This document shows positions 27,410 through 48,067 of a DNA stretch of 64,000 nucleotides, piece after piece. Every line of letters starts with the position of its first letter. Positions within the stretch are counted from its first letter, which is position 1. The stretch is from Tribonema minus. Its lineage: Eukaryota > Sar > Xanthophyceae > Tribonematales > Tribonemataceae. The DNA lies in assembly GCA_017506865.1 (NCBI GenBank), contig JAFCMP010000490.1, forward strand, positions 186,001-250,000, written 5' to 3'. The notes beneath the pieces are model-generated. The model searched no databases. It was given only the letters and a program-made list of their open reading frames with translations, and was not told the DNA's origin. A program made the translations under genes and the position numbers.

Positions 27410-28615
27410 ATGCCGAGGCCGGCGAAGAAGCAGAAGGTCAGGCGCACGCTGAGCACATTGGAGCACTTGAACGGCCGAGATGCACAGGTCGTGGCCATCG
27501 AGCACGCCGATGACGTTGCTGCACAGGAGATTTTCGATGCCAACGAGAACATCCTGTGGCTCGGCGTCAGCGGCAGCAGCTTCGTCATAGAGTTCAACAG
27601 GCTGCAGGAGTTTGCGCCGTTCGCAAGGCGGTACAGCACGGCAAAGAACATCGGCCGCAGGCAGCTACGTGATCTGCGCGAGTCGACGACTTGGGAAGCC
27701 GTGTTTACCCGCGATATCGAGGTGGTGGAGCCACCGTACCGCGACGGCTACTTCAACTACTTCTTGCAGGGCAGGTGGCGTCAGGTCGATGCCGTCGAGT
27801 GGACCGTAGGCATTACGCTTATGAACATGGCGGGCAACTCCAAACACCGCACACACGACTTTAACAAGAAGTTGGCTGCCATCAACCTGCGTGCTGCATT
27901 CACGAGGTGCCTGACGACGGCTTGCAACTGCGGCCTTGTCAAATGCGAAGCGATCATGGTGCTGCGCGGCATGCACGCAGCGTCGCCGGACCGCGCCGAC
28001 AACACGTTGGGGTACTGCCATCCTGGGCAGGTGCTCACGATTTTATCCGAGTGTCATAACACTGCCGTCAAGCCCGACGCAATTCCCGTGAAGCGGGAGA
28101 AGCCCGTGCACTGGCTGAGGGCGACAGTCAGGAGCAGGGTGCAATCCACCAGCAAGAGGATGAACCTGTTGATCAAAAAACATCAAGGACGAGCACCGCA
28201 CGGAGGCGGAGCGCAGCCAGGTTGTGCGGTTCAACGGGACGACACGCAAGCAGTTGCGAAAGCATACACTGCGGTGTTGGAGCAGATGTCACGGAGACGC
28301 TTTATGCACTGCCCCAGTTGCGACTCGCTGCTGGACAAGGGCGACGTGCGGGGGATGATGCATTTTACCAACGTGCCCAACCAAGCGTCTCCCGACCGCA
28401 TCGACAACAGTAACCCGTTCTACGACCTCGATAACGTCCGCCTGGTGTGTCAGTCCTGCAACTTCTCGGAGAACGACTACGTCCGCGTCCACGTCGAGCG
28501 CCCGTCGGTCAACAATCCGGCAGAGTACCCTCTCGACATCCCCAAGGTGATCGCGTACCTGACGAGCGTCATCGCAGCGGAAGAGGCGAAGGAGCGTAAG
28601 CAGGCCACAGCGTGA
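27410..28615 (+). CDS. HNH-endonuclease-like protein, copy 1
   Basis: The first ATG is at 27410; ends TGA. About 401 residues. The N-terminal two thirds ('AQEIFDANENILWLGVSG', 'EWTVGITLMNMAG') are shared only with copy 2 at 46.4 kb. The C-terminus has a zinc-binding HNH/McrA-like arrangement: 'CPSCDSLLDKG', 'MMHFTNVPNQASPDRIDN' and 'LVCQSCN'. Such domains nick or cut DNA in homing endonucleases and viral genes. Compared with copy 2, an extra A in the run at 28177-28183 and a lost base near 28265 put about 30 residues in another frame, after which the frame is restored. It is divergent from the MYND gene (264-nt gap). Confidence 0.7.
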   Translation: MPRPAKKQKVRRTLSTLEHLNGRDAQVVAIEHADDVAAQEIFDANENILWLGVSGSSFVIEFNRLQEFAPFARRYSTAKNIGRRQLRDLRESTTWEAVFTRDIEVVEPPYRDGYFNYFLQGRWRQVDAVEWTVGITLMNMAGNSKHRTHDFNKKLAAINLRAAFTRCLTTACNCGLVKCEAIMVLRGMHAASPDRADNTLGYCHPGQVLTILSECHNTAVKPDAIPVKREKPVHWLRATVRSRVQSTSKRMNLLIKKHQGRAPHGGGAQPGCAVQRDDTQAVAKAYTAVLEQMSRRRFMHCPSCDSLLDKGDVRGMMHFTNVPNQASPDRIDNSNPFYDLDNVRLVCQSCNFSENDYVRVHVERPSVNNPAEYPLDIPKVIAYLTSVIAAEEAKERKQATA

Positions 28616-40709: not shown

Positions 40710-41066
40710 TCAACCCGCCGTTCCGGCGATCTGCCCAAATGGGTGACCCATGGCTGGGTTGTATATTAGCTGAAACAGTTCGGCTCTGTCTTGTGTAAAA
40801 ACGTGGTCGATGATGTCCTCCTCTGACACACAGACTCGACCAACGTGATCATCAATCAACACGTGATATCCGGTCGCCCTGTGTCTAAGCACGATGCAGT
40901 ACACGGAATTCGGTTCATCTGATATCAGCGGCAATGAGCTGCTAACCAGAGGGGTTAACCAGATCCGATATATATCGGTTCTACGTACTTCGTACGTACC
41001 ACCGATAACATCCGAACAGTTCGGTCCGAACCCTTCGCGTAAACATGTGAAAAGACTAGGCACCAC
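40710..41066 (-). CDS. Possible partial ORF, 118 codons, no ATG
   Basis: The frame is open from 41066 to TGA at 40710, without an in-frame ATG before the last residues. The part below about 40920 has a protein-like look ('SVYCIVLRHRATGYHVLIDD', 'EEDIIDHVFTQDRAELFQLI'), while the upstream part runs through the palindrome cluster. It may be the 3' remnant of a host or viral gene cut by the insertion of the CRESS-like unit. Confidence 0.3.
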   Translation of the reverse strand: MVPSLFTCLREGFGPNCSDVIGGTYEVRRTDIYRIWLTPLVSSSLPLISDEPNSVYCIVLRHRATGYHVLIDDHVGRVCVSEEDIIDHVFTQDRAELFQLIYNPAMGHPFGQIAGTAG

Positions 41067-41092
41067 GAAACGTTTCGGTCACGAACCGTTCG
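40953..41092. other. Cluster of five or more palindromes at the left side of the CRESS-like unit
   Basis: Within 140 bp: GGTTAACC; CCGATATATATCGG (40965-40978, perfect); TACGTAC-TTC-GTACGTA (40982-40998); CCGAAC-A-GTTCGG (41012-41024); CGAAACGTTTCG (41066-41077, perfect); CGAAC-C-GTTCG (41082-41092). Such density is unusual and marks either a replication/recombination region or the insertion border. Confidence 0.75.
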
Positions 41093-41215
41093 GGTCACCG
41101 ACCCGTTCATTTAAAACAAATTGTAGGTGTTTATCATTACAATAACCTCCTACTTTTCAATATCAATCTCACGTTGTGAGAATCTCAGATCGGTACCATT
41201 CAGATATTTTGCGGT

Positions 41216-41240
41216 ACTTCAACTTGAAGTTATAAAATAT
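41216..41240 (+). promoter_or_regulatory. Promoter candidate: inverted ACTTCAA motif plus TATA box
   Basis: ACTTCAA-C-TTGAAGT (41216-41230) is immediately followed by TATAAAATAT (41231-41240), 19 nt before the ATG at 41259. The same motif occurs in LTRs in this window. Confidence 0.5.
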
Positions 41241-41258
41241 TGCGACCGTTCAACAGTT

Positions 41259-41684
41259 ATGAACCGTCAAGTGCGCGTCAACAAGGCACGAGCGTCAGCC
41301 CGCCTTTGGCGTATGCTCACTGCAACGCTACGCAAACAGTCATACCACCAAGCACAACACGCTGTTACTAACAGCGAGCACCACTATTACACCTGGAAGG
41401 TACAACAACAGAACGCGCGTAAGCTATTGTTCCGCCTAGACGGTAGATGGCCGGCAGTGGACGACCCCTGTCTACACTGGCTACCAGCCCGTAGGCCGCC
41501 ACCACCCGTCTTTGGCCCCAACAGACCACGCTTCTGGACCACAAACATCCAAAACGCAGCACGTTTTGACCCAAACTACAGACATCTTAGATTCTCAGGA
41601 TGGAATTACAACCCAACCCCACCAAACACCCCACGCGCAGGGCGTGTGTACGCTGGTGGAGGTAAGTACCGACGCACCAGCTAA
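41259..41684 (+). CDS. Small basic protein of the CRESS-like unit, 141 residues
   Basis: ATG at 41259 after a TATA-like box. Strongly basic N-terminus ('MNRQVRVNKARASARLWRML'), several Trp/Tyr, and a Pro-rich middle. Ends TAG/TAA region at 41684. The composition suits a nucleic-acid-binding or minor structural protein. No family recognised. It converges with the small minus ORF. Confidence 0.55.
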   Translation: MNRQVRVNKARASARLWRMLTATLRKQSYHQAQHAVTNSEHHYYTWKVQQQNARKLLFRLDGRWPAVDDPCLHWLPARRPPPPVFGPNRPRFWTTNIQNAARFDPNYRHLRFSGWNYNPTPPNTPRAGRVYAGGGKYRRTS

Positions 41685-41946
41685 TCCCACAGGAACTGTG
41701 AGCACAGAAAACAGTGTGGACGCCATCCATCCATACAAACATGCAATGTAGGAAAACCCTATATGTGTATAACCGGAGTAATCCCACGGTAAGGCCCGCG
41801 AAGCGGGGGTGGGTACTTCATAGATAAAACAAAGGACACAGCCGCAATGTAATAGCAAATATAAGCTGATGAAGCTTACAACATCATCTAAACAGCACAA
41901 CACCGATGTGCAGAGTCAAATAGAACGCCGTGTGCCGAGATTTCAT

Positions 41947-42231
41947 TTAATCACGGACACAGCACAGGCACTGCCTGTTGTAGGCGCGCCACGCGCTTGG
42001 GCTGACCTTCAGTTGCGATTGTAAAGTGGCCCCAGTCCATGTCAGCATATCCGCCCTGTACGCCGCCCTGTCAATCCCCCCCATACACCAGGAGGAACAG
42101 CCCTCGTTCGCCCATTGGATCAACCTGTCCCGCACAGGTTTCCATAGTCGCAAGCCCACGGTAGTGAAGCAGAACTCCTCCTGGAACCGCTCCACCAGCT
42201 CATCATACTCCGCTTCCGTGTGCTCTGCCAT
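41947..42231 (-). CDS. Small acidic-to-neutral ORF divergent from Rep, 94 residues
   Basis: The first ATG is at 42231 ('MAEHTEAEYDELVERFQEEF'). It contains 'LWKPVRDRLIQWANEGCSSW' and four cysteines. It shares an 80-nt divergent promoter region with Rep that contains GAACTTCAAC and an AT-rich box. Function unknown; its conserved-looking placement next to Rep suggests a regulatory role. Confidence 0.5.
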   Translation of the reverse strand: MAEHTEAEYDELVERFQEEFCFTTVGLRLWKPVRDRLIQWANEGCSSWCMGGIDRAAYRADMLTWTGATLQSQLKVSPSAWRAYNRQCLCCVRD

Positions 42232-42311
42232 ACCTCCGGAAGTGATGTCAAGATTCCTAATTTTAACTACGAACTTCAACTATTTACTAATTAAAATATT
42301 GGGTTGAAGAA

Positions 42312-43391
42312 ATGAGCGGAAGTATCAGAGACCATGTGTTTATCACGCAGTCACAGACACAAATTACAAAGGAACAGTTCACCGCCATTGTTATGACAGC
42401 CAAGCCTGTCGCCGGCGTCATCGTCCAAGAAGAGCACGGCGATGGCGGCGTTCACTTCCACACTGCCATATTCGGAAGCTTCAGAGCCGATCGGCTCGCG
42501 CAGAAGCTCCGCAAGCAACTCTACGAAGGTGCACACCTACAACTAGACTACCAGCACCCACCAAAGAAAGGTGCGAAGAAAGGCGCACCATGGTACTTCC
42601 CTGCCATGGTACAGTACGTTATATGCCCAGCGAAAGACAAAGTTTTGGATGAATATCCAACCTACATAAACTCTGAGTCATACGATACATTAATAGCAGC
42701 ATATACAGCATACGATACAGATCTTGACGCATTCGAGAAGCTGCAGCAGCTAAAGGATGCTGGTGGCTGCACAAATGATGCAATTATTATGATCGCGTCT
42801 AAGTTAGACCGCGAGACGTCTTATTTATACAGGGTACAGATGGATTTCTGGGCCAATCTGTCATGCAAGTGGCCCAGGATGCTGCCCGCCGACGCCAAAC
42901 CACGCGATTGGCAGAAGAAAGCTATGGACTTCGCCTTCGAACCGCGCACACACGACACAAACAACGTGGGCCTTTGGTGCACGCGGTGCACTGGCGATGG
43001 TAAAAGTTTTCTATGTACATATATGACTGAGAACCACCGCAACGACACCTACTACCCGGGAGTACGGCCCAGCGGCTCGCACGACTTCAATTCCATGATG
43101 GGATACACAGGACAGCGCGTCATCATATTTGACGACGTGTCGCCCGGTCAGGTTAGCACATACGCCACCGTCGTCGTTGAACACTGGAAAAACTCGTTTT
43201 TAGACCTAATCAAGAAACTATGCGATACAACACCTATATCTGTTGACTTCGGCGGTGTGCACCGCGAAATCCCTATATTAGGTCGCATCATTATCACCTC
43301 GAACTTTGGTCTCCCTAAGGGCAGAAACGCACAGGAAACACAAGCCATAGCGCGCAGGTACCTGTTAGTCGATGATGCCTGGGGCAAGTAG
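42312..43391 (+). CDS. rep: CRESS-DNA-virus replication initiator (HUH endonuclease + SF3 helicase)
   Basis: 359 residues, ATG to TAG. The N-terminal HUH domain has motif I-like 'VFITQSQ', motif II 'GGVHFHTAI' (His 48, His 50 for metal) and motif III 'VQYVICPAKDK' with the candidate catalytic Tyr 102. The C-terminal SF3 helicase has Walker A 'CTGDGKS' (residues 226-232), Walker B 'VIIFDDVS' (270-277) and motif C 'RIIITSN' (325-331), with 'ARRY' near 347 as arginine finger. Rep nicks the origin, covalently joins the 5' end and drives rolling-circle replication in the nucleus. The length is typical. Divergent from the 94-residue ORF; 3' end faces the hairpin array. Confidence 0.9.
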   Translation: MSGSIRDHVFITQSQTQITKEQFTAIVMTAKPVAGVIVQEEHGDGGVHFHTAIFGSFRADRLAQKLRKQLYEGAHLQLDYQHPPKKGAKKGAPWYFPAMVQYVICPAKDKVLDEYPTYINSESYDTLIAAYTAYDTDLDAFEKLQQLKDAGGCTNDAIIMIASKLDRETSYLYRVQMDFWANLSCKWPRMLPADAKPRDWQKKAMDFAFEPRTHDTNNVGLWCTRCTGDGKSFLCTYMTENHRNDTYYPGVRPSGSHDFNSMMGYTGQRVIIFDDVSPGQVSTYATVVVEHWKNSFLDLIKKLCDTTPISVDFGGVHREIPILGRIIITSNFGLPKGRNAQETQAIARRYLLVDDAWGK

Positions 43392-43512
43392 TCCCTGGGT
43401 GGTACTTGGGTTAGAAATATCAAGAATGTTTAGCATTTTGGGTTTTTATATTGCACAAATTGTGTTCCTGATAGTTCATTAGTGTTGGTTTTCAAATTTC
43501 AACCCAAAAATT

Positions 43513-43612
43513 AGCATGACATTACTCTAGAATTGGTCATGCTACCCCATACATCGCATGGGGTAGCGGCTACTGGCTCCTCTGGAGACATTAGCCAGTA
43601 GGGCTTTGCCCT
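43513..43612. other. Array of four hairpins between the convergent rep and lipase genes
   Basis: In order: AGCATGAC/GTCATGCT (43513-43520 with 43536-43543, 15-nt loop); GCTACCCCAT/ATGGGGTAGC (43541-43550 with 43558-43567, 7-nt loop); CTACTGGCT/AGCCAGTAG (43570-43578 with 43593-43601, 14-nt loop); AGGGC/GCCCT (43600-43604 with 43608-43612). Neighbouring stems share bases, so they are alternative or linked structures. Possible roles are replication origin, bidirectional 3' processing or a packaging signal. No canonical NANTATTAC nonamer lies in the loops. Confidence 0.8.
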
Positions 43613-43766
43613 ACGTTTCCATTAACTTGTTAATTTAGTTGCAGCTCCTCGTGCCTATAGCACAGTGAGTTCGCATCGCCTGCGATGTACCTGCAACTTT
43701 AGGTCCAGTCTGCTTCGAGCATGGTGCAAACGGCTGAGCGTAGCGAAGGAACAGCACGCGGAGACG

Positions 43767-44408
43767 CTAATAATACCTATCATGCACATTAAACACTCCC
43801 GGTCTGTCGTAGTAGGTGTGCCTACCGCTAGACCAACGGGCTCCACCACTAACAGGGTCCCTCCTGTTAAGGTAGTCCGTGTAACGGCTGTATCTGTTTT
43901 CTCCGTACTGCGGGCCCAACCTGTAACCAGTGTTGAAGCCAACAGCGAGAGAAACCCTTTGGTTGTTACTTACTGCTCTAGCAGTAGAAGCACCCAAGCT
44001 GTGACCTGTCACAACCACCTTCATGTTGGAAGGAATTTTGTTTATCATACGGTTTAAATCTGCAACACGGCGATCATACCGTTGCAAACCATGTGCAATC
44101 ATGTAGTCCGAAGCTAAATCTTCGACACGCGTGACTGAAGTTCCTCTTGCAGCGAGCACCATAGTGTTGCTGCCAGGTATTGCGAACGCTGTCCAGCGTC
44201 CATGAGAGTCAGAGTATTCGTTGACCTTGCGGTAGAGGTCATAGCCTGTAGTTGTGGGATTGTATGCATGCCCAGACAGGCGGGACAACGTCTCTGCGCT
44301 CGGGGCTTGCCCACGATCCCTTTCCTCGCGCGCAGTTGGTTGTACGTATCGAGTATTTCCTCGATAAGCACTAACTGCGTTAAACATAGACTGTCCACGC
44401 ACATCCAT
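43767..44408 (-). CDS. Class-3 (alpha/beta-hydrolase) lipase-like protein
   Basis: 213 residues from ATG at 44408; the frame is open 18 codons further without ATG. It shows the class-3 lipase landmarks: 'VLAARGTSVT' (oxyanion strand, residues 84-93), 'VVVTGHSLGAS' with nucleophile Ser 137, 'NRRDPVSG' with candidate Asp 184, and candidate His 197 in 'GRHTYYD'. The family cleaves acyl esters of glycerides or phospholipids. No signal peptide is visible. Its 53-nt divergent spacing from the capsid-like gene and intact frame show it belongs to the viral unit. To my knowledge a lipase is not a standard gene of described CRESS-DNA viruses; it could aid membrane passage. Confidence 0.8.
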   Translation of the reverse strand: MDVRGQSMFNAVSAYRGNTRYVQPTAREERDRGQAPSAETLSRLSGHAYNPTTTGYDLYRKVNEYSDSHGRWTAFAIPGSNTMVLAARGTSVTRVEDLASDYMIAHGLQRYDRRVADLNRMINKIPSNMKVVVTGHSLGASTARAVSNNQRVSLAVGFNTGYRLGPQYGENRYSRYTDYLNRRDPVSGGARWSSGRHTYYDRPGVFNVHDRYY

Positions 44409-44461
44409 GACTGTTGCACACAAACATAGATAAAAAATGTTGGATATTGTGTAATCATACA

Positions 44462-45097
44462 ATGAGCGGCTCTATGCAGCATGGTAAGCCTACAGGCAAT
44501 AAATATTTTGACGTGTGTAACGACCCCTGGAATGCACCACCGAGCTCTACCCGTGACACGTACAGTGGAGGCACAATCCCTCTCAAGCTCCGTCAATCCG
44601 CAACATTGGCACCGTCTGCTACCAACGGTCTGGCAGCCTACAACTTCAGCCCAACCTTCAGTGCCCCCATGAACGGGTCAGTTATCACTGGCGCACTCAT
44701 CTCCTCGTGGGGTGCATCAGTCGCCCTCGACGACTACGCAGCACTCCTACTCCAGTTCAAGCTGTTACGCTGGGTTTCTGTGGGTGTGTGCGTTTCGTAC
44801 ATTGGCCAGGAGAGTACCGCCGCCGGCAAAATTCTCCTTGTGCCTCTTACATACATTTCAGCTCCAGCTGGAGAAGTCAGCGCCACCATCAGCGACTGGA
44901 GGGATTACGCAGGCGCTAGCTCTGTTAGTGTTCCGCTTATGAGGCAAACTATCTGTGCAGCATCCAACAACTTCGATAAACCGGTATTTCTCCCGCTAAC
45001 CTCCTCTCACGGATCAACGTTCCCATCGTTCATCGTGGGCACAGTCAGCGCCCCTAACTCTGCTTGCATTAGGGTTGACATAACCATGAACGTTTAA
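44462..45097 (+). CDS. Capsid-like protein of the CRESS-like unit, 211 residues
   Basis: ATG at 44462, TAA at 45097; an upstream ATG at 44414 is less likely because it would overlap the lipase start. After a short Gly/Lys N-terminus, the protein is strand-rich with small polar residues ('GASVALDDYAALLLQFKLLR', 'WVSVGVCVSYIGQE', 'KILLVPLTYISAPAG', 'FIVGTVSAPNSACIRVDITM'). The pattern 'F..LR..SV.V.Y' followed by a Gly/Lys loop recalls single-jelly-roll capsids of small icosahedral viruses. It has no catalytic motif. Its position next to a basic protein gene and its compact size support a capsid, but fold prediction is needed. Confidence 0.6.
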   Translation: MSGSMQHGKPTGNKYFDVCNDPWNAPPSSTRDTYSGGTIPLKLRQSATLAPSATNGLAAYNFSPTFSAPMNGSVITGALISSWGASVALDDYAALLLQFKLLRWVSVGVCVSYIGQESTAAGKILLVPLTYISAPAGEVSATISDWRDYAGASSVSVPLMRQTICAASNNFDKPVFLPLTSSHGSTFPSFIVGTVSAPNSACIRVDITMNV

Positions 45098-45121
45098 GCC
45101 ATTCCGTTCCCTACTTCTCCC

Positions 45122-45412
45122 ATGCACCAAATGGCGAAGTCAACACTCCCGAACCTTGTGCAGATGGACTACACCGCGCGCAGGCTCCCCGCCGCTCGCG
45201 TGTCCAACGCCGGAATGGAGGACGTCATCGTTAAGTCGGCCATTCGTACTACCACTGGCCGTGCTGGCACCCTTAAACGTGCCCGTGCGCGCCCCGCTAA
45301 GTCCACAGCCAGCAAATACAGCAAGTACAAGTACGCACGCCCGACTTCTACACCTTCCGCATGGAAGAAGTATTCCACCAAGAAGTTCACGTACACCAAG
45401 CGCCGCCTTTAA
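45122..45412 (+). CDS. Small highly basic protein downstream of capsid
   Basis: 96 residues (ATG 45122; second ATG four codons on), 25 nt after the capsid stop. The C-terminal half is almost all Arg/Lys/Ser/Tyr ('RARARPAKSTASKYSKYKYA', 'KKYSTKKFTYTKRRL'). Such arginine-rich tails bind ssDNA inside capsids and act as nuclear localisation signals. In many CRESS viruses this stretch is fused to the capsid N-terminus; here it is a separate ORF, so a two-part capsid is possible. Confidence 0.65.
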   Translation: MHQMAKSTLPNLVQMDYTARRLPAARVSNAGMEDVIVKSAIRTTTGRAGTLKRARARPAKSTASKYSKYKYARPTSTPSAWKKYSTKKFTYTKRRL

Positions 45413-45561
45413 AATACAACTCTTTTTAAACATTTCAAACACCCCAACAGCGACTGTCCACCTCCCGTGCCCCACTTATGACATTAAGCCGAAACGTTTC
45501 AAAGTCCGACCCTTTCACTGAAAGGTCAAGACCTTCTGGTTATCAGCATATGTCACCAACT

Positions 45562-46053
45562 TCAACCGATATCAACCGATATCACCCCTCTGGTTTGCAG
45601 ACCCATGCATATCAGCGGCCACAACGTAGCGAGCCGATACAACATCAATTGAGAGCTGATGTTGACCGCGCCGTTCTGCGCCAAGGAAAAATCATGAACT
45701 GGCTGAACGACCCATGTCGGTTTGGAGAGCACTCTAAATTGAAACCAAATGTAAGGAACGGGTTCCCACTTCGGTTCGACAGACAGTCGAACTGCGCTGG
45801 CAAGCTCCATTTCATGCTGAAAAGCAGCTTGACCTTCCAGATGGCTCAGCGCACCCTCAAACATTGCGCAGTCTACTGGAGGAATGAGCTGCAGGCGCTG
45901 CAGGTCGCGCTGCAGGTCTGCACGTGCGCGCTGGAGCTGTTCGTAGTCTCGCCTGACCTCCAAGACGTACTCGACCATGACAGCCGGAGGCACCTTGCAC
46001 AGATCGTGAGCGGGCATGGTTCCTAGAGTTTGACGCAACAGGGTGCCCTCCAT
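45562..46053 (-). CDS. Unknown coiled-coil protein, 163 residues
   Basis: ATG at 46053. A clear amphipathic helix lies at residues about 28-55 ('VMVEYVLEVRRDYEQLQRAR', then 'ADLQRDLQRLQ'), followed by mixed sequence. No family recognised. It lies just right of the CRESS-like unit, and its 3' end at 45562 overlaps no other supported gene. Confidence 0.5.
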   Translation of the reverse strand: MEGTLLRQTLGTMPAHDLCKVPPAVMVEYVLEVRRDYEQLQRARADLQRDLQRLQLIPPVDCAMFEGALSHLEGQAAFQHEMELASAVRLSVEPKWEPVPYIWFQFRVLSKPTWVVQPVHDFSLAQNGAVNISSQLMLYRLATLWPLICMGLQTRGVISVDIG

Positions 46054-46456: not shown

Positions 46457-48067
46457 ATGGCGAAGCGTAAGCGTGGGTCGTCACCTGGTGCGGCGCGCGA
46501 GTGCAGCGGGCAGTTCCAACGGCACATCGACGACGTCAACAACCGTGCTGATGATGGCGTCACAGCGGCCGGTGCTTGCCGGCTTAAGCTGATGACCGAC
46601 GCGAATGTGCGGCGCATGACTGTGCTCGAACGGCTGCTGCAGACAGAGGAGTGTAAATCCGTGCTGGTGAACGTGCTCGATGTACCGGCAGAAGTCGATT
46701 CTGCTCCGTTTGCCGCACTGAAGCATTTGAGCGGAAAATTGGCGCAAGTCGTGGTCATTGAGAACTCGGGCGGTGTCGCTGCTGCACAGGAGATATTCGA
46801 CACGAACGAGAACATCCTGTGGCTCGGCATCAGCGGCAGCAGCTTCGTCATCGAGTTCAACAGGCAGCAGAGGTTCGCGCCGTTCGCAAGGCGGTACAAC
46901 ACGGCGAAGAACATCGGTCGGCCTCAGTTGCTGCTTCTACACGAGTCGACGACTTGGGAAACCGAGTTTACCCGCGAGATCGAGGTGGTGGAGCCACCGT
47001 ACCGCGATCGCCTCTTCAGCTATTTCGAGCACGGAAGGTGGACCCAGGTCGACGTCCTCGAGTGGACCGTAGGCATTACGCTTATGAACATGGCGGGCCA
47101 CTCAAAGGACCGCACACACGACTTTGATAAAAAGACGGCAGCGACCAACCTGCGCGCTGCGTTCAAGAGGTGCCACACGTCCGCCTGCAACTGCGGCCGT
47201 CCCGAATGGACCGTAGGCATTACGCTTATGAACATGGCGGGCCACTCGAAGGACCGCACACACGACTTTGATAAAAAGACGGCAGCGACCAACCTGCGCG
47301 CTGCGTTCAAGAGGTGCCACACGTCCGCCTGCAACTGCGGCCGTCCCGAATGCGACGCGGTCATGGTGCTACGCGGCGTGCACGCGGCGTCGCCGGACCG
47401 CGCCGACAACACGTTCGGGTACTGCCATCCCGGACAGGTGATTTCCGTTGTATCCAAATGACACAACACCCGATTCAAGCACGACGCAATTTCCGTGAAG
47501 CGGGAGACACCCGTGCACTTGCTGCGGCTGACGGTTTGCAACCAGGTGAACAGCACCAGCAAGAGGATGAACAGGCTGATCAAGAACATCAAGGACGAGC
47601 ACCGCACGGAGGCGGAGCGCAGCCAGGTTGTGCAGTATAACGGGACGATACGCAAGCAGTGGCGGGTGCATTACACTGCGGTCATGGAGCAAATGTCACA
47701 TCATGTGCGCTGCCCCAGTTGCAGCAGACAGCTGGACAAGGGCGACGCGCAAGGGATGATGCACTTCACCAACGTGCCCAACCAGGCGTCCCCGGACCGC
47801 ATCGACAACAGTAACCCGTTCTACGACCTCGACAACGTCCGCCTGGTGTGCCAGAGCTGCAACTACTCGGAGAACGACTACAGCCGCGTCCACGTCGAGC
47901 GCCCGTCAGCCAACAACCCGGCAGAGTACGCCTTGGACATCTCCAAGGTGATCGTATACCTGACGAGCGTCATCGCAGCGGAGGAGCGCAAGGAGAACGA
48001 CACACGCAAACGCGCGCAGGCAAAGAAGGCATCGAAAGCCACACAGGACACGCAGGACACAATGTGA
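46457..48067 (+). pseudogene. HNH-endonuclease-like protein, copy 2, one premature TGA and an internal duplication
   Basis: ATG at 46457 ('MAKRKRGSS'). Homologous to 27410-28615 across its length, with a longer N-terminus (about 90 residues more). Codons 47063-47350 hold a perfect 48-residue tandem duplication. A TGA at 47459-47461 replaces the Cys codon (TGT) of copy 1, after which the frame continues unbroken into 'NIKDEHRTEAERSQVV' and the HNH part: 'CPSCSRQLDKG', 'MMHFTNVPNQASPDRIDN', 'LVCQSCNYSENDY'. The last residues are a basic/Gln tail. The HNH half also has its own ATG at 47495, so a separate shorter protein is conceivable. The 3' end overlaps the MULE copy B 3' end by about 100 nt. 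Confidence 0.72.
47063..47350 (+). repeat. 144-bp in-frame tandem duplication
   Basis: 47063-47206 and 47207-47350 differ at one base by eye (A/G in the Ser codon near 47105/47249). The unit encodes 48 residues starting 'WTVGITLMNMAGHSKDRTHD'. Copy 1 of the gene has a single unit, so this duplication is recent. Confidence 0.92.

What the first reader, a model, noticed from the sequence alone, without database searches (positions are those of the whole stretch)
41060..45500. CRESS-DNA-virus-like replicon with a lipase, a capsid candidate and a separate basic protein
Seen: six intact ORFs in about 4.4 kb on both strands, Rep with HUH and SF3 motifs, a GHSLG lipase, a strand-rich 211-residue protein and an Arg/Lys-rich 96-residue protein. 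Known: Cressdnaviricota carry Rep plus capsid, and bacilladnaviruses of diatoms have a few extra ORFs. Inference: this is an undescribed lineage, integrated recently (no lesions although neighbouring genes are damaged) or still active as a circular form.
Basis: partly seen in the sequence, partly recalled or inferred. Interest (0 to 1): 0.9.

Follow-up and report, generated by a model that had tools for sequence, protein, structure and literature searches.

The report
Transposon-like algal CRESS-virus element with phospholipase
A yellow-green alga carries several copies of a small single-stranded-DNA-virus-like genome (replication protein, possible shell protein, membrane-cutting enzyme) that sit in its chromosomes with the tidy ends and duplicated target sites of a jumping gene, which hints at a virus of this kind that integrates in a regular way.

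Summary
Window 40931-45608 (4,678 bp) is one of at least five related insertions in this genome, very probably Tribonema minus. It encodes a CRESS-type Rep (HUH + SF3), a class-3-lipase/phospholipase-like enzyme, a basic ORF1 protein and a capsid candidate. The "separate basic protein" is the capsid candidate's C-terminal tail, cut off by an in-frame stop in this copy. The sixth ORF (41947-42279, minus) is absent from the three other long copies.

New: exact ends, imperfect 25-bp terminal inverted repeats, and a perfect 9-bp target-site duplication in 3 of 3 copies that keep both ends. Removing the window copy rejoins a 234-codon host frame. Genes diverged under purifying selection (dN/dS 0.07-0.33 in 14 of 14 comparisons), with silent divergence jumping twelvefold between neighbouring genes, as in recombining viruses. 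No transposase is encoded. The Rep lacks bacilladnavirus signatures; its only relatives found are three metagenomic Reps (34-42% identity).

Best reading: integrated copies of an undescribed, bacilladnavirus-like CRESS lineage that inserts by a transposase-type reaction supplied in trans. The capsid fold is unproven.

The parts
40922..40930 (.). left target-site duplication ATATCAGCG
   Evidence: identical to 45609-45617; same arrangement with other 9-mers at C335 and C519
40931..40955 (+). left terminal inverted repeat
   Evidence: 25-bp imperfect inverted match to the right end; left border agrees within about 3 bp in C335, C522, C519 and C46
40965..40978 (.). two adjacent CCGATAT iteron-like motifs (one on each strand) in a subterminal palindrome
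   Evidence: 4 such motifs in the element, two at each end; 8 in the whole window
41259..41684 (+). ORF1, 141-aa basic protein (25 K/R, 5 D/E)
   Evidence: dN/dS 0.10-0.13 against three copies; no family match above a cut-off
41719..42264 (.). stretch found in this copy but not in the three other long copies; it holds most of the minus ORF 41947-42279, which is not part of the conserved gene set
   Evidence: no match in C335, C522 or C46
42312..43391 (+). Rep, 359 aa: HUH endonuclease plus SF3 helicase
   Evidence: motifs, PF00910 E=0.0011 just under its cut-off, fold matches, homologues P0001-P0003
43512..43614 (.). four consecutive hairpins between Rep and the lipase; candidate origin or transcription terminators
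   Evidence: perfect arms of 7-10 bp; DNA fold of 43480-43640 z=-5.27, 0 of 200 shuffles as good
43767..44408 (-). class-3 lipase / phospholipase A1-like enzyme, 213 aa; Ser of GHSLG with candidate Asp and His
   Evidence: PF01764 E=1.5e-5; homologue P0005 (longest contig 4,420 nt) keeps Ser, Asp and His
44462..45097 (+). capsid candidate, first 211 codons, ended by an in-frame stop at 45095-45097
   Evidence: dN/dS 0.07-0.17, the lowest with saturated dS
   Evidence: same frame; uninterrupted at this place in C335 and C46
45566..45582 (+). two CCGATAT iteron-like motifs next to the right inverted repeat
45584..45608 (-). right terminal inverted repeat
   Evidence: its core 16-mer is exact at three places in the genome
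45609..45617 (.). right target-site duplication ATATCAGCG
45618..46053 (-). 5' part of the interrupted host reading frame (from its first in-frame ATG); the 3' part is 40710-40930
   Evidence: joined flanks give one 234-codon frame; six joins shifted by 1, 2 or 4 bases leave 81-98 codons in the minus frames

Best explanation
These are integrated copies of an undescribed lineage of small CRESS-DNA viruses (or virus-derived mobile elements) of Tribonema. Shown: the genome piece goes in as a unit with fixed ends, inverted repeats and a 9-bp target duplication. Inferred: a transposase supplied in trans cuts or joins at the ends; outside the chromosome Rep replicates the element as a circle; the capsid protein with its basic tail packages DNA; the phospholipase opens membranes on entry or exit, as proposed for bacilladnaviruses. 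The selection pattern implies that a functional cycle using all these genes ran between insertions, and that the transposon-type ends belonged to the moving form throughout. Individual copies then decay in the host.
For: Left border agreeing within about 3 bp in 5 copies and perfect 9-bp duplications of three different sequences in 3 of 3 copies with both ends (in the same of 59,991 random 9-mer pairs from the window were equal). Host frame restored by exact removal at the window site. dN/dS 0.07-0.33 in 14 of 14 gene comparisons, while dS between the window and C335 jumps from 0.08 (lipase) to 0.95 (neighbouring capsid candidate), as recombination would give. CRESS Rep by motif and fold. Relatives of Rep and lipase on short metagenome contigs (longest 4,042 and 4,420 nt; whether complete or circular is unknown). 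PLA1 is reported in three bacilladnavirus genera (PMC11903649).
Against: No transposase recognised in the element, and no match to PF10551, PF12762 or PF00872 in the genome. The capsid fold is unproven. All four long copies (window, C335, C522, C46) have lesions, and C46 has no Rep match. Only three copies keep both ends, the C519 ends are rearranged, and no viral protein was found between or near them. The lipase comparison with C335 rests on 12 silent and 12 replacement changes (ratio 0.33). A free form has not been seen.
Confidence: 0.6

Rival explanations
1. The 'inverted repeats' are the two arms of the viral replication origin. Rep nicks the loop of the stem-loop, the genome is linearised there, and the linear form is joined into a staggered break, which yields the duplication. 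Fixed ends would then come from Rep, not from a transposase.
For: Placed end to end (45 nt of each), the two termini fold into a long stem with a short loop (DNA energy -21.5, z=-7.4, 300 shuffles) and CCGATAT iteron-like motifs lie on both sides, the layout of a CRESS origin (the comparison with CRESS origins is recalled).
Against: A constant 9-bp duplication of unrelated sequences is what DDE transposases make; HUH enzymes are not known to make one (recalled). Any pair of inverted repeats folds when abutted. A second hairpin cluster (43512-43614) is an equally good origin candidate.
Confidence: 0.17
2. An ordinary host transposon with these inverted repeats captured a viral genome once and carried it around as passenger cargo.
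For: Two loci, C301 and C479, share the left terminus with the element and about 200 bp with each other (86%), but no viral protein was found in the 10 kb fetched at each. Geminivirus-like and parvovirus-like transposons are published (PMC3198968).
Against: A passenger should decay, but all four proteins were kept under purifying selection while copies diverged, in the capsid candidate to dS of about 0.7 and more. Neighbouring genes have different histories, which fits recombination between co-replicating genomes.
Confidence: 0.15
3. A non-viral host plasmid or replicon with a plasmid-type Rep; the 211-residue protein is not a capsid.
Against: No match to plasmid Reps by tblastn; about 316 codons with a basic tail beside a PLA1-like enzyme and a CRESS Rep resembles bacilladnavirus gene content; fold matches are led by viral Reps.
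Confidence: 0.06

Closest known systems
Bacilladnaviridae (diatom CRESS-DNA viruses)
   Same: Stramenopile algal host, genome of about 3.5-6 kb, HUH + SF3 Rep, capsid gene, and in three genera a derived phospholipase A1 with GxSxG Ser plus Asp and His (PMC11903649).
   Different: The Rep lacks the FP of motif I, the two glutamates of Walker B and the PF of the Arg finger. Here the basic region is at the C terminus of the capsid candidate, not an N-terminal R-arm. Integrated with inverted repeats and a 9-bp duplication; that paper has 0 hits for 'integrat', 'transpos' and 'endogenous'.
ssDNA-virus-like transposons (geminivirus-like in Tuber melanosporum, parvovirus-like in acorn worm; PMC3198968)
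   Same: ssDNA-virus-derived repeats in a eukaryotic genome; the Tuber one with a Rep and terminal inverted repeats.
   Different: The Tuber element carries two damaged transposase ORFs, no obvious target duplication and copies > 95% identical (passages); ours has no transposase, a perfect 9-bp duplication, a capsid candidate, a lipase and diverged copies under selection.
Endogenous bacilladnavirus Rep fragment of Chaetoceros tenuissimus (PMC8613185)
   Same: CRESS Rep-derived DNA in a stramenopile alga, flanked by a target duplication.
   Different: That one is a broken Rep fragment with LINE-type features (passages); ours is a whole gene set with inverted repeats.
Mavirus-type virophages and polinton-like viruses
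   Same: Integrating small viruses of protists (recalled), some with PLA1 (PMC11903649).
   Different: They encode their own integrase and are double-stranded DNA viruses of the PRD1-adenovirus kind (recalled).

Membership tests
Cressdnaviricota | Rep with HUH endonuclease motifs I and II and that fold | tested here: met
Cressdnaviricota | Motif III YxxK | tested here: not met
   All four members have Y-x3-P-x-K-x-K, with Lys at +6 and +8 and none at +3; Tyr is invariant
Cressdnaviricota | SF3 helicase (Walker A, Walker B, motif C, Arg finger) | tested here: met
   GK[ST], DD/NE, TSNF and RRY in all four; the usual first Gly of Walker A is replaced in the window (usual form recalled); PF00910 hit by 3 of 4 members at E<=10, best E 0.0011, the window's score under the curated cut-off
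Cressdnaviricota | Circular ssDNA genome | not testable with these tools
   no reads, no free form at hand
Cressdnaviricota | Jelly-roll capsid protein | tested here: inconclusive
   model pLDDT 34; no profile match
Bacilladnaviridae | FP in motif I, EE in Walker B, PF in Arg finger (PMC11903649) | tested here: not met
   window has VFIT, FDD and RRY; motif strings of the 4 members show no FP, EE or PF
Bacilladnaviridae | PLA1 homologue (three genera only) | tested here: inconclusive
   class-3 lipase with Ser, Asp, His shared with P0005; not compared directly with bacilladnavirus PLA1
Bacilladnaviridae | Genome about 3.5-6 kb | tested here: met
   4,678 bp between the ends
Cut-and-paste (DDE) DNA transposon | Terminal inverted repeats and fixed-length target duplication | tested here: met
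   3 of 3 copies with both ends
Cut-and-paste (DDE) DNA transposon | Own transposase | tested here: not met
   none recognised among the six ORFs scanned
Mutator (MULE) or Merlin superfamily | Matching transposase in the genome (9-bp duplications suggest these; recalled) | tested here: inconclusive
   0 matches for PF10551, PF12762, PF00872 at E<=1e-3; other or diverged families not tested

The most novel reading that the evidence does not exclude
A eukaryotic CRESS-DNA virus with a true proviral stage: its genome ends serve both as transposase-recognised inverted repeats when integrated and as the two halves of the Rep origin (stem plus iterons) when circularised, so integration takes the origin apart and excision rebuilds it.
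Probability: 0.25. Interest if true: 0.9.

Novelty: new variant of a known kind. Interest (0 to 1): 0.72.

Why it matters
Eukaryotic CRESS viruses are generally regarded as integrating only by accident (recalled). A family of copies with exact ends and target duplications, whose proteins stayed under selection between insertions, suggests a regular virus-transposon cycle in the ssDNA world. It would also give the xanthophyte algae a candidate ssDNA virus lineage (I know of no other; recalled), extend the phospholipase-bearing CRESS viruses beyond diatoms, and offer a cultured host in which to test whether the free form exists.

Tried and rejected
Searches without result. Relatives in IMG/VR, queries A1, P0001, P0003, P0005, P0002: none. 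Rep in phages, plasmids and prokaryote genome contigs: none. Capsid candidate against 5.8 billion proteins: none; against PDB and Pfam: none credible (best 0.53). Its single-sequence structure model was useless, so no fold search was run with it. PF00910 in the genome at 1e-3: none, although the Rep itself scores 0.0011. PF10551, PF12762 and PF00872: none. Right ends for C301 and C479: not found in the 10 kb fetched at each. Viral proteins in the 18 kb fetched at C519: none. A Rep tree was not built: only four family members were at hand and no reference CRESS Reps were fetched.

Paper searches: ten in an open-access library. No listed title or abstract start names such an element in Tribonema; three searches returned no paper, long hit lists were seen only in part, and most subscription papers are not held. 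Read as passages only: PMC8613185, PMC6668415, PMC3198968. PMC11903649: abstract, sections 3, 11, 12 and passages. All other listed papers: listing only. Replitrons: the name is recalled; only listings were seen.

Full report
WHAT AND WHERE. The window lies in a 158-Mb, 554-contig genome. The gene-model protein P0004, named Tribonema minus hypothetical protein JKP88DRAFT_280511, maps back to this window piece by piece: 43023-43154 at 98%, 45161-45244 at 100%, and the right flank. So the genome is very probably T. minus (Xanthophyceae), and pieces of the element have been annotated as exons of a chimeric host gene. The element's kilobases have 48-54% GC against mostly 52-65% in the window, though other low stretches exist at 55-57 and 59-64 kb.

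THE CAPSID CANDIDATE. The 211-residue ORF and the 96-residue basic ORF are in one frame; a stop at 45095-45097 and eight codons separate them. In C335 one open frame spans the end of the first and most of the second, and in C46 an open frame also runs across. The natural protein is thus about 316 codons with a basic C-terminal tail, near the 333 and 392 residues of the two bacilladnavirus capsid proteins compared in PMC11903649. Its fold could not be tested: single-sequence prediction gave pLDDT 34 and profiles found nothing. 'Capsid' is an inference from position, size, composition and company.

COPIES. Related insertions: C335 (442068-446581, minus), C522 (from 15332; right end not found), C46 (from 509277, with inserted blocks and no Rep match), C519 (both termini, rearranged, no viral protein found in 18 kb fetched) and a diverged fragment at C517; a weak lipase match lies at C528 (46%). 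All four long copies, the window's included, have lesions. The left-terminus 16-mer is exact at seven places: the left ends of C490 (window), C335, C522, C46 and C519, plus C301 and C479, which share about 200 bp with each other. The right-terminus 16-mer is exact at three: C490, C335, C519. The reversed control patterns gave 2 and 3 matches at up to one mismatch. The left border agrees within about 3 bp in five copies.

INTEGRATION. The ends are 5'-GCA(A/G)TGAGCTGC... and ...CCATGC-3', imperfect inverted repeats of about 25 bp. The 9 bp next to each end are identical in all three copies with both ends: ATATCAGCG, CGCAGGTAC, TCATAGTGG. At the window site, joining the flanks with one duplication gives a 234-codon open host frame; six joins moved by 1, 2 or 4 bases leave 81-98 codons in the minus frames, though plus-strand frames of 148-158 codons then appear. 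The C335 test was not informative. This is transposase-type insertion; no transposase was recognised in the element, and three transposase families were not found in the genome.

SELECTION AND MOSAICISM. Over ORF1, Rep, lipase, capsid candidate and its tail, compared with C335, C522 and C46 where alignable, dN/dS is 0.07-0.33 in 14 of 14 comparisons; Rep is missing from the C46 comparison, only its first half is compared with C522, and the capsid dS against C46 (2.1) is saturated. Silent divergence from C335 is 0.08 for lipase, 0.24 for Rep, 0.40 for ORF1, 0.42 for the tail and 0.95 for the capsid candidate. Such jumps between neighbours are expected from recombination among replicating genomes, not from decay of sister insertions. 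Bacilladnaviruses show similar Rep/capsid incongruence (PMC11903649).

ORIGIN OF REPLICATION. Two candidates: a cluster of four hairpins between Rep and lipase (z=-5.27), and the abutted ends, which would form a long stem-loop flanked by CCGATAT motifs, four in the element, two at each end. The second makes the novel case attractive, but inverted repeats always fold when abutted.

VERDICT. A CRESS-virus-like element of a new lineage, working like a virus-transposon hybrid. It resembles bacilladnaviruses in size, host group and lipase, but the Rep signatures given for them were tested and not met, so it is not filed there; the YxxK form of motif III is not met either, so even CRESS membership rests on the other motifs and the fold. 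ssDNA-virus-derived transposons are known (PMC3198968); one with a capsid candidate, a lipase, a fixed 9-bp duplication and selection-maintained, recombining copies did not appear in the listings of the ten paper searches.

Noticed in passing
window 46493-48064 and 27449-28612: Two stretches (88% and 58% aa) match the part of gene model P0004 that lies right of the element; P0004 carries an HNH domain (PF01844). A 156-bp direct repeat sits at 47053-47352.
   Followed up: no
L050 (C301:877500-887499): A tandem array of about 495-bp units, each holding a stretch of about 120 bp that matches, in both orientations, a place near the left end of the C335 and C522 copies.
   Followed up: no
C301:886607 and C479:832405: Two loci share the element's left terminus and about 200 bp with each other, but no viral protein was found in 10 kb; possibly another element family moved by the same transposase.
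   Followed up: partly
C46:509471-512924 and C519:747049-750499: A 3.45-kb repeat at 99% identity lies right behind the left end of the C46 copy and outside the left end of the C519 copy.
   Followed up: no
C517:304619-305908: A more diverged relative (lipase pieces 58-73%, capsid candidate piece 60%), pointing to a second lineage in the same genome.
   Followed up: partly
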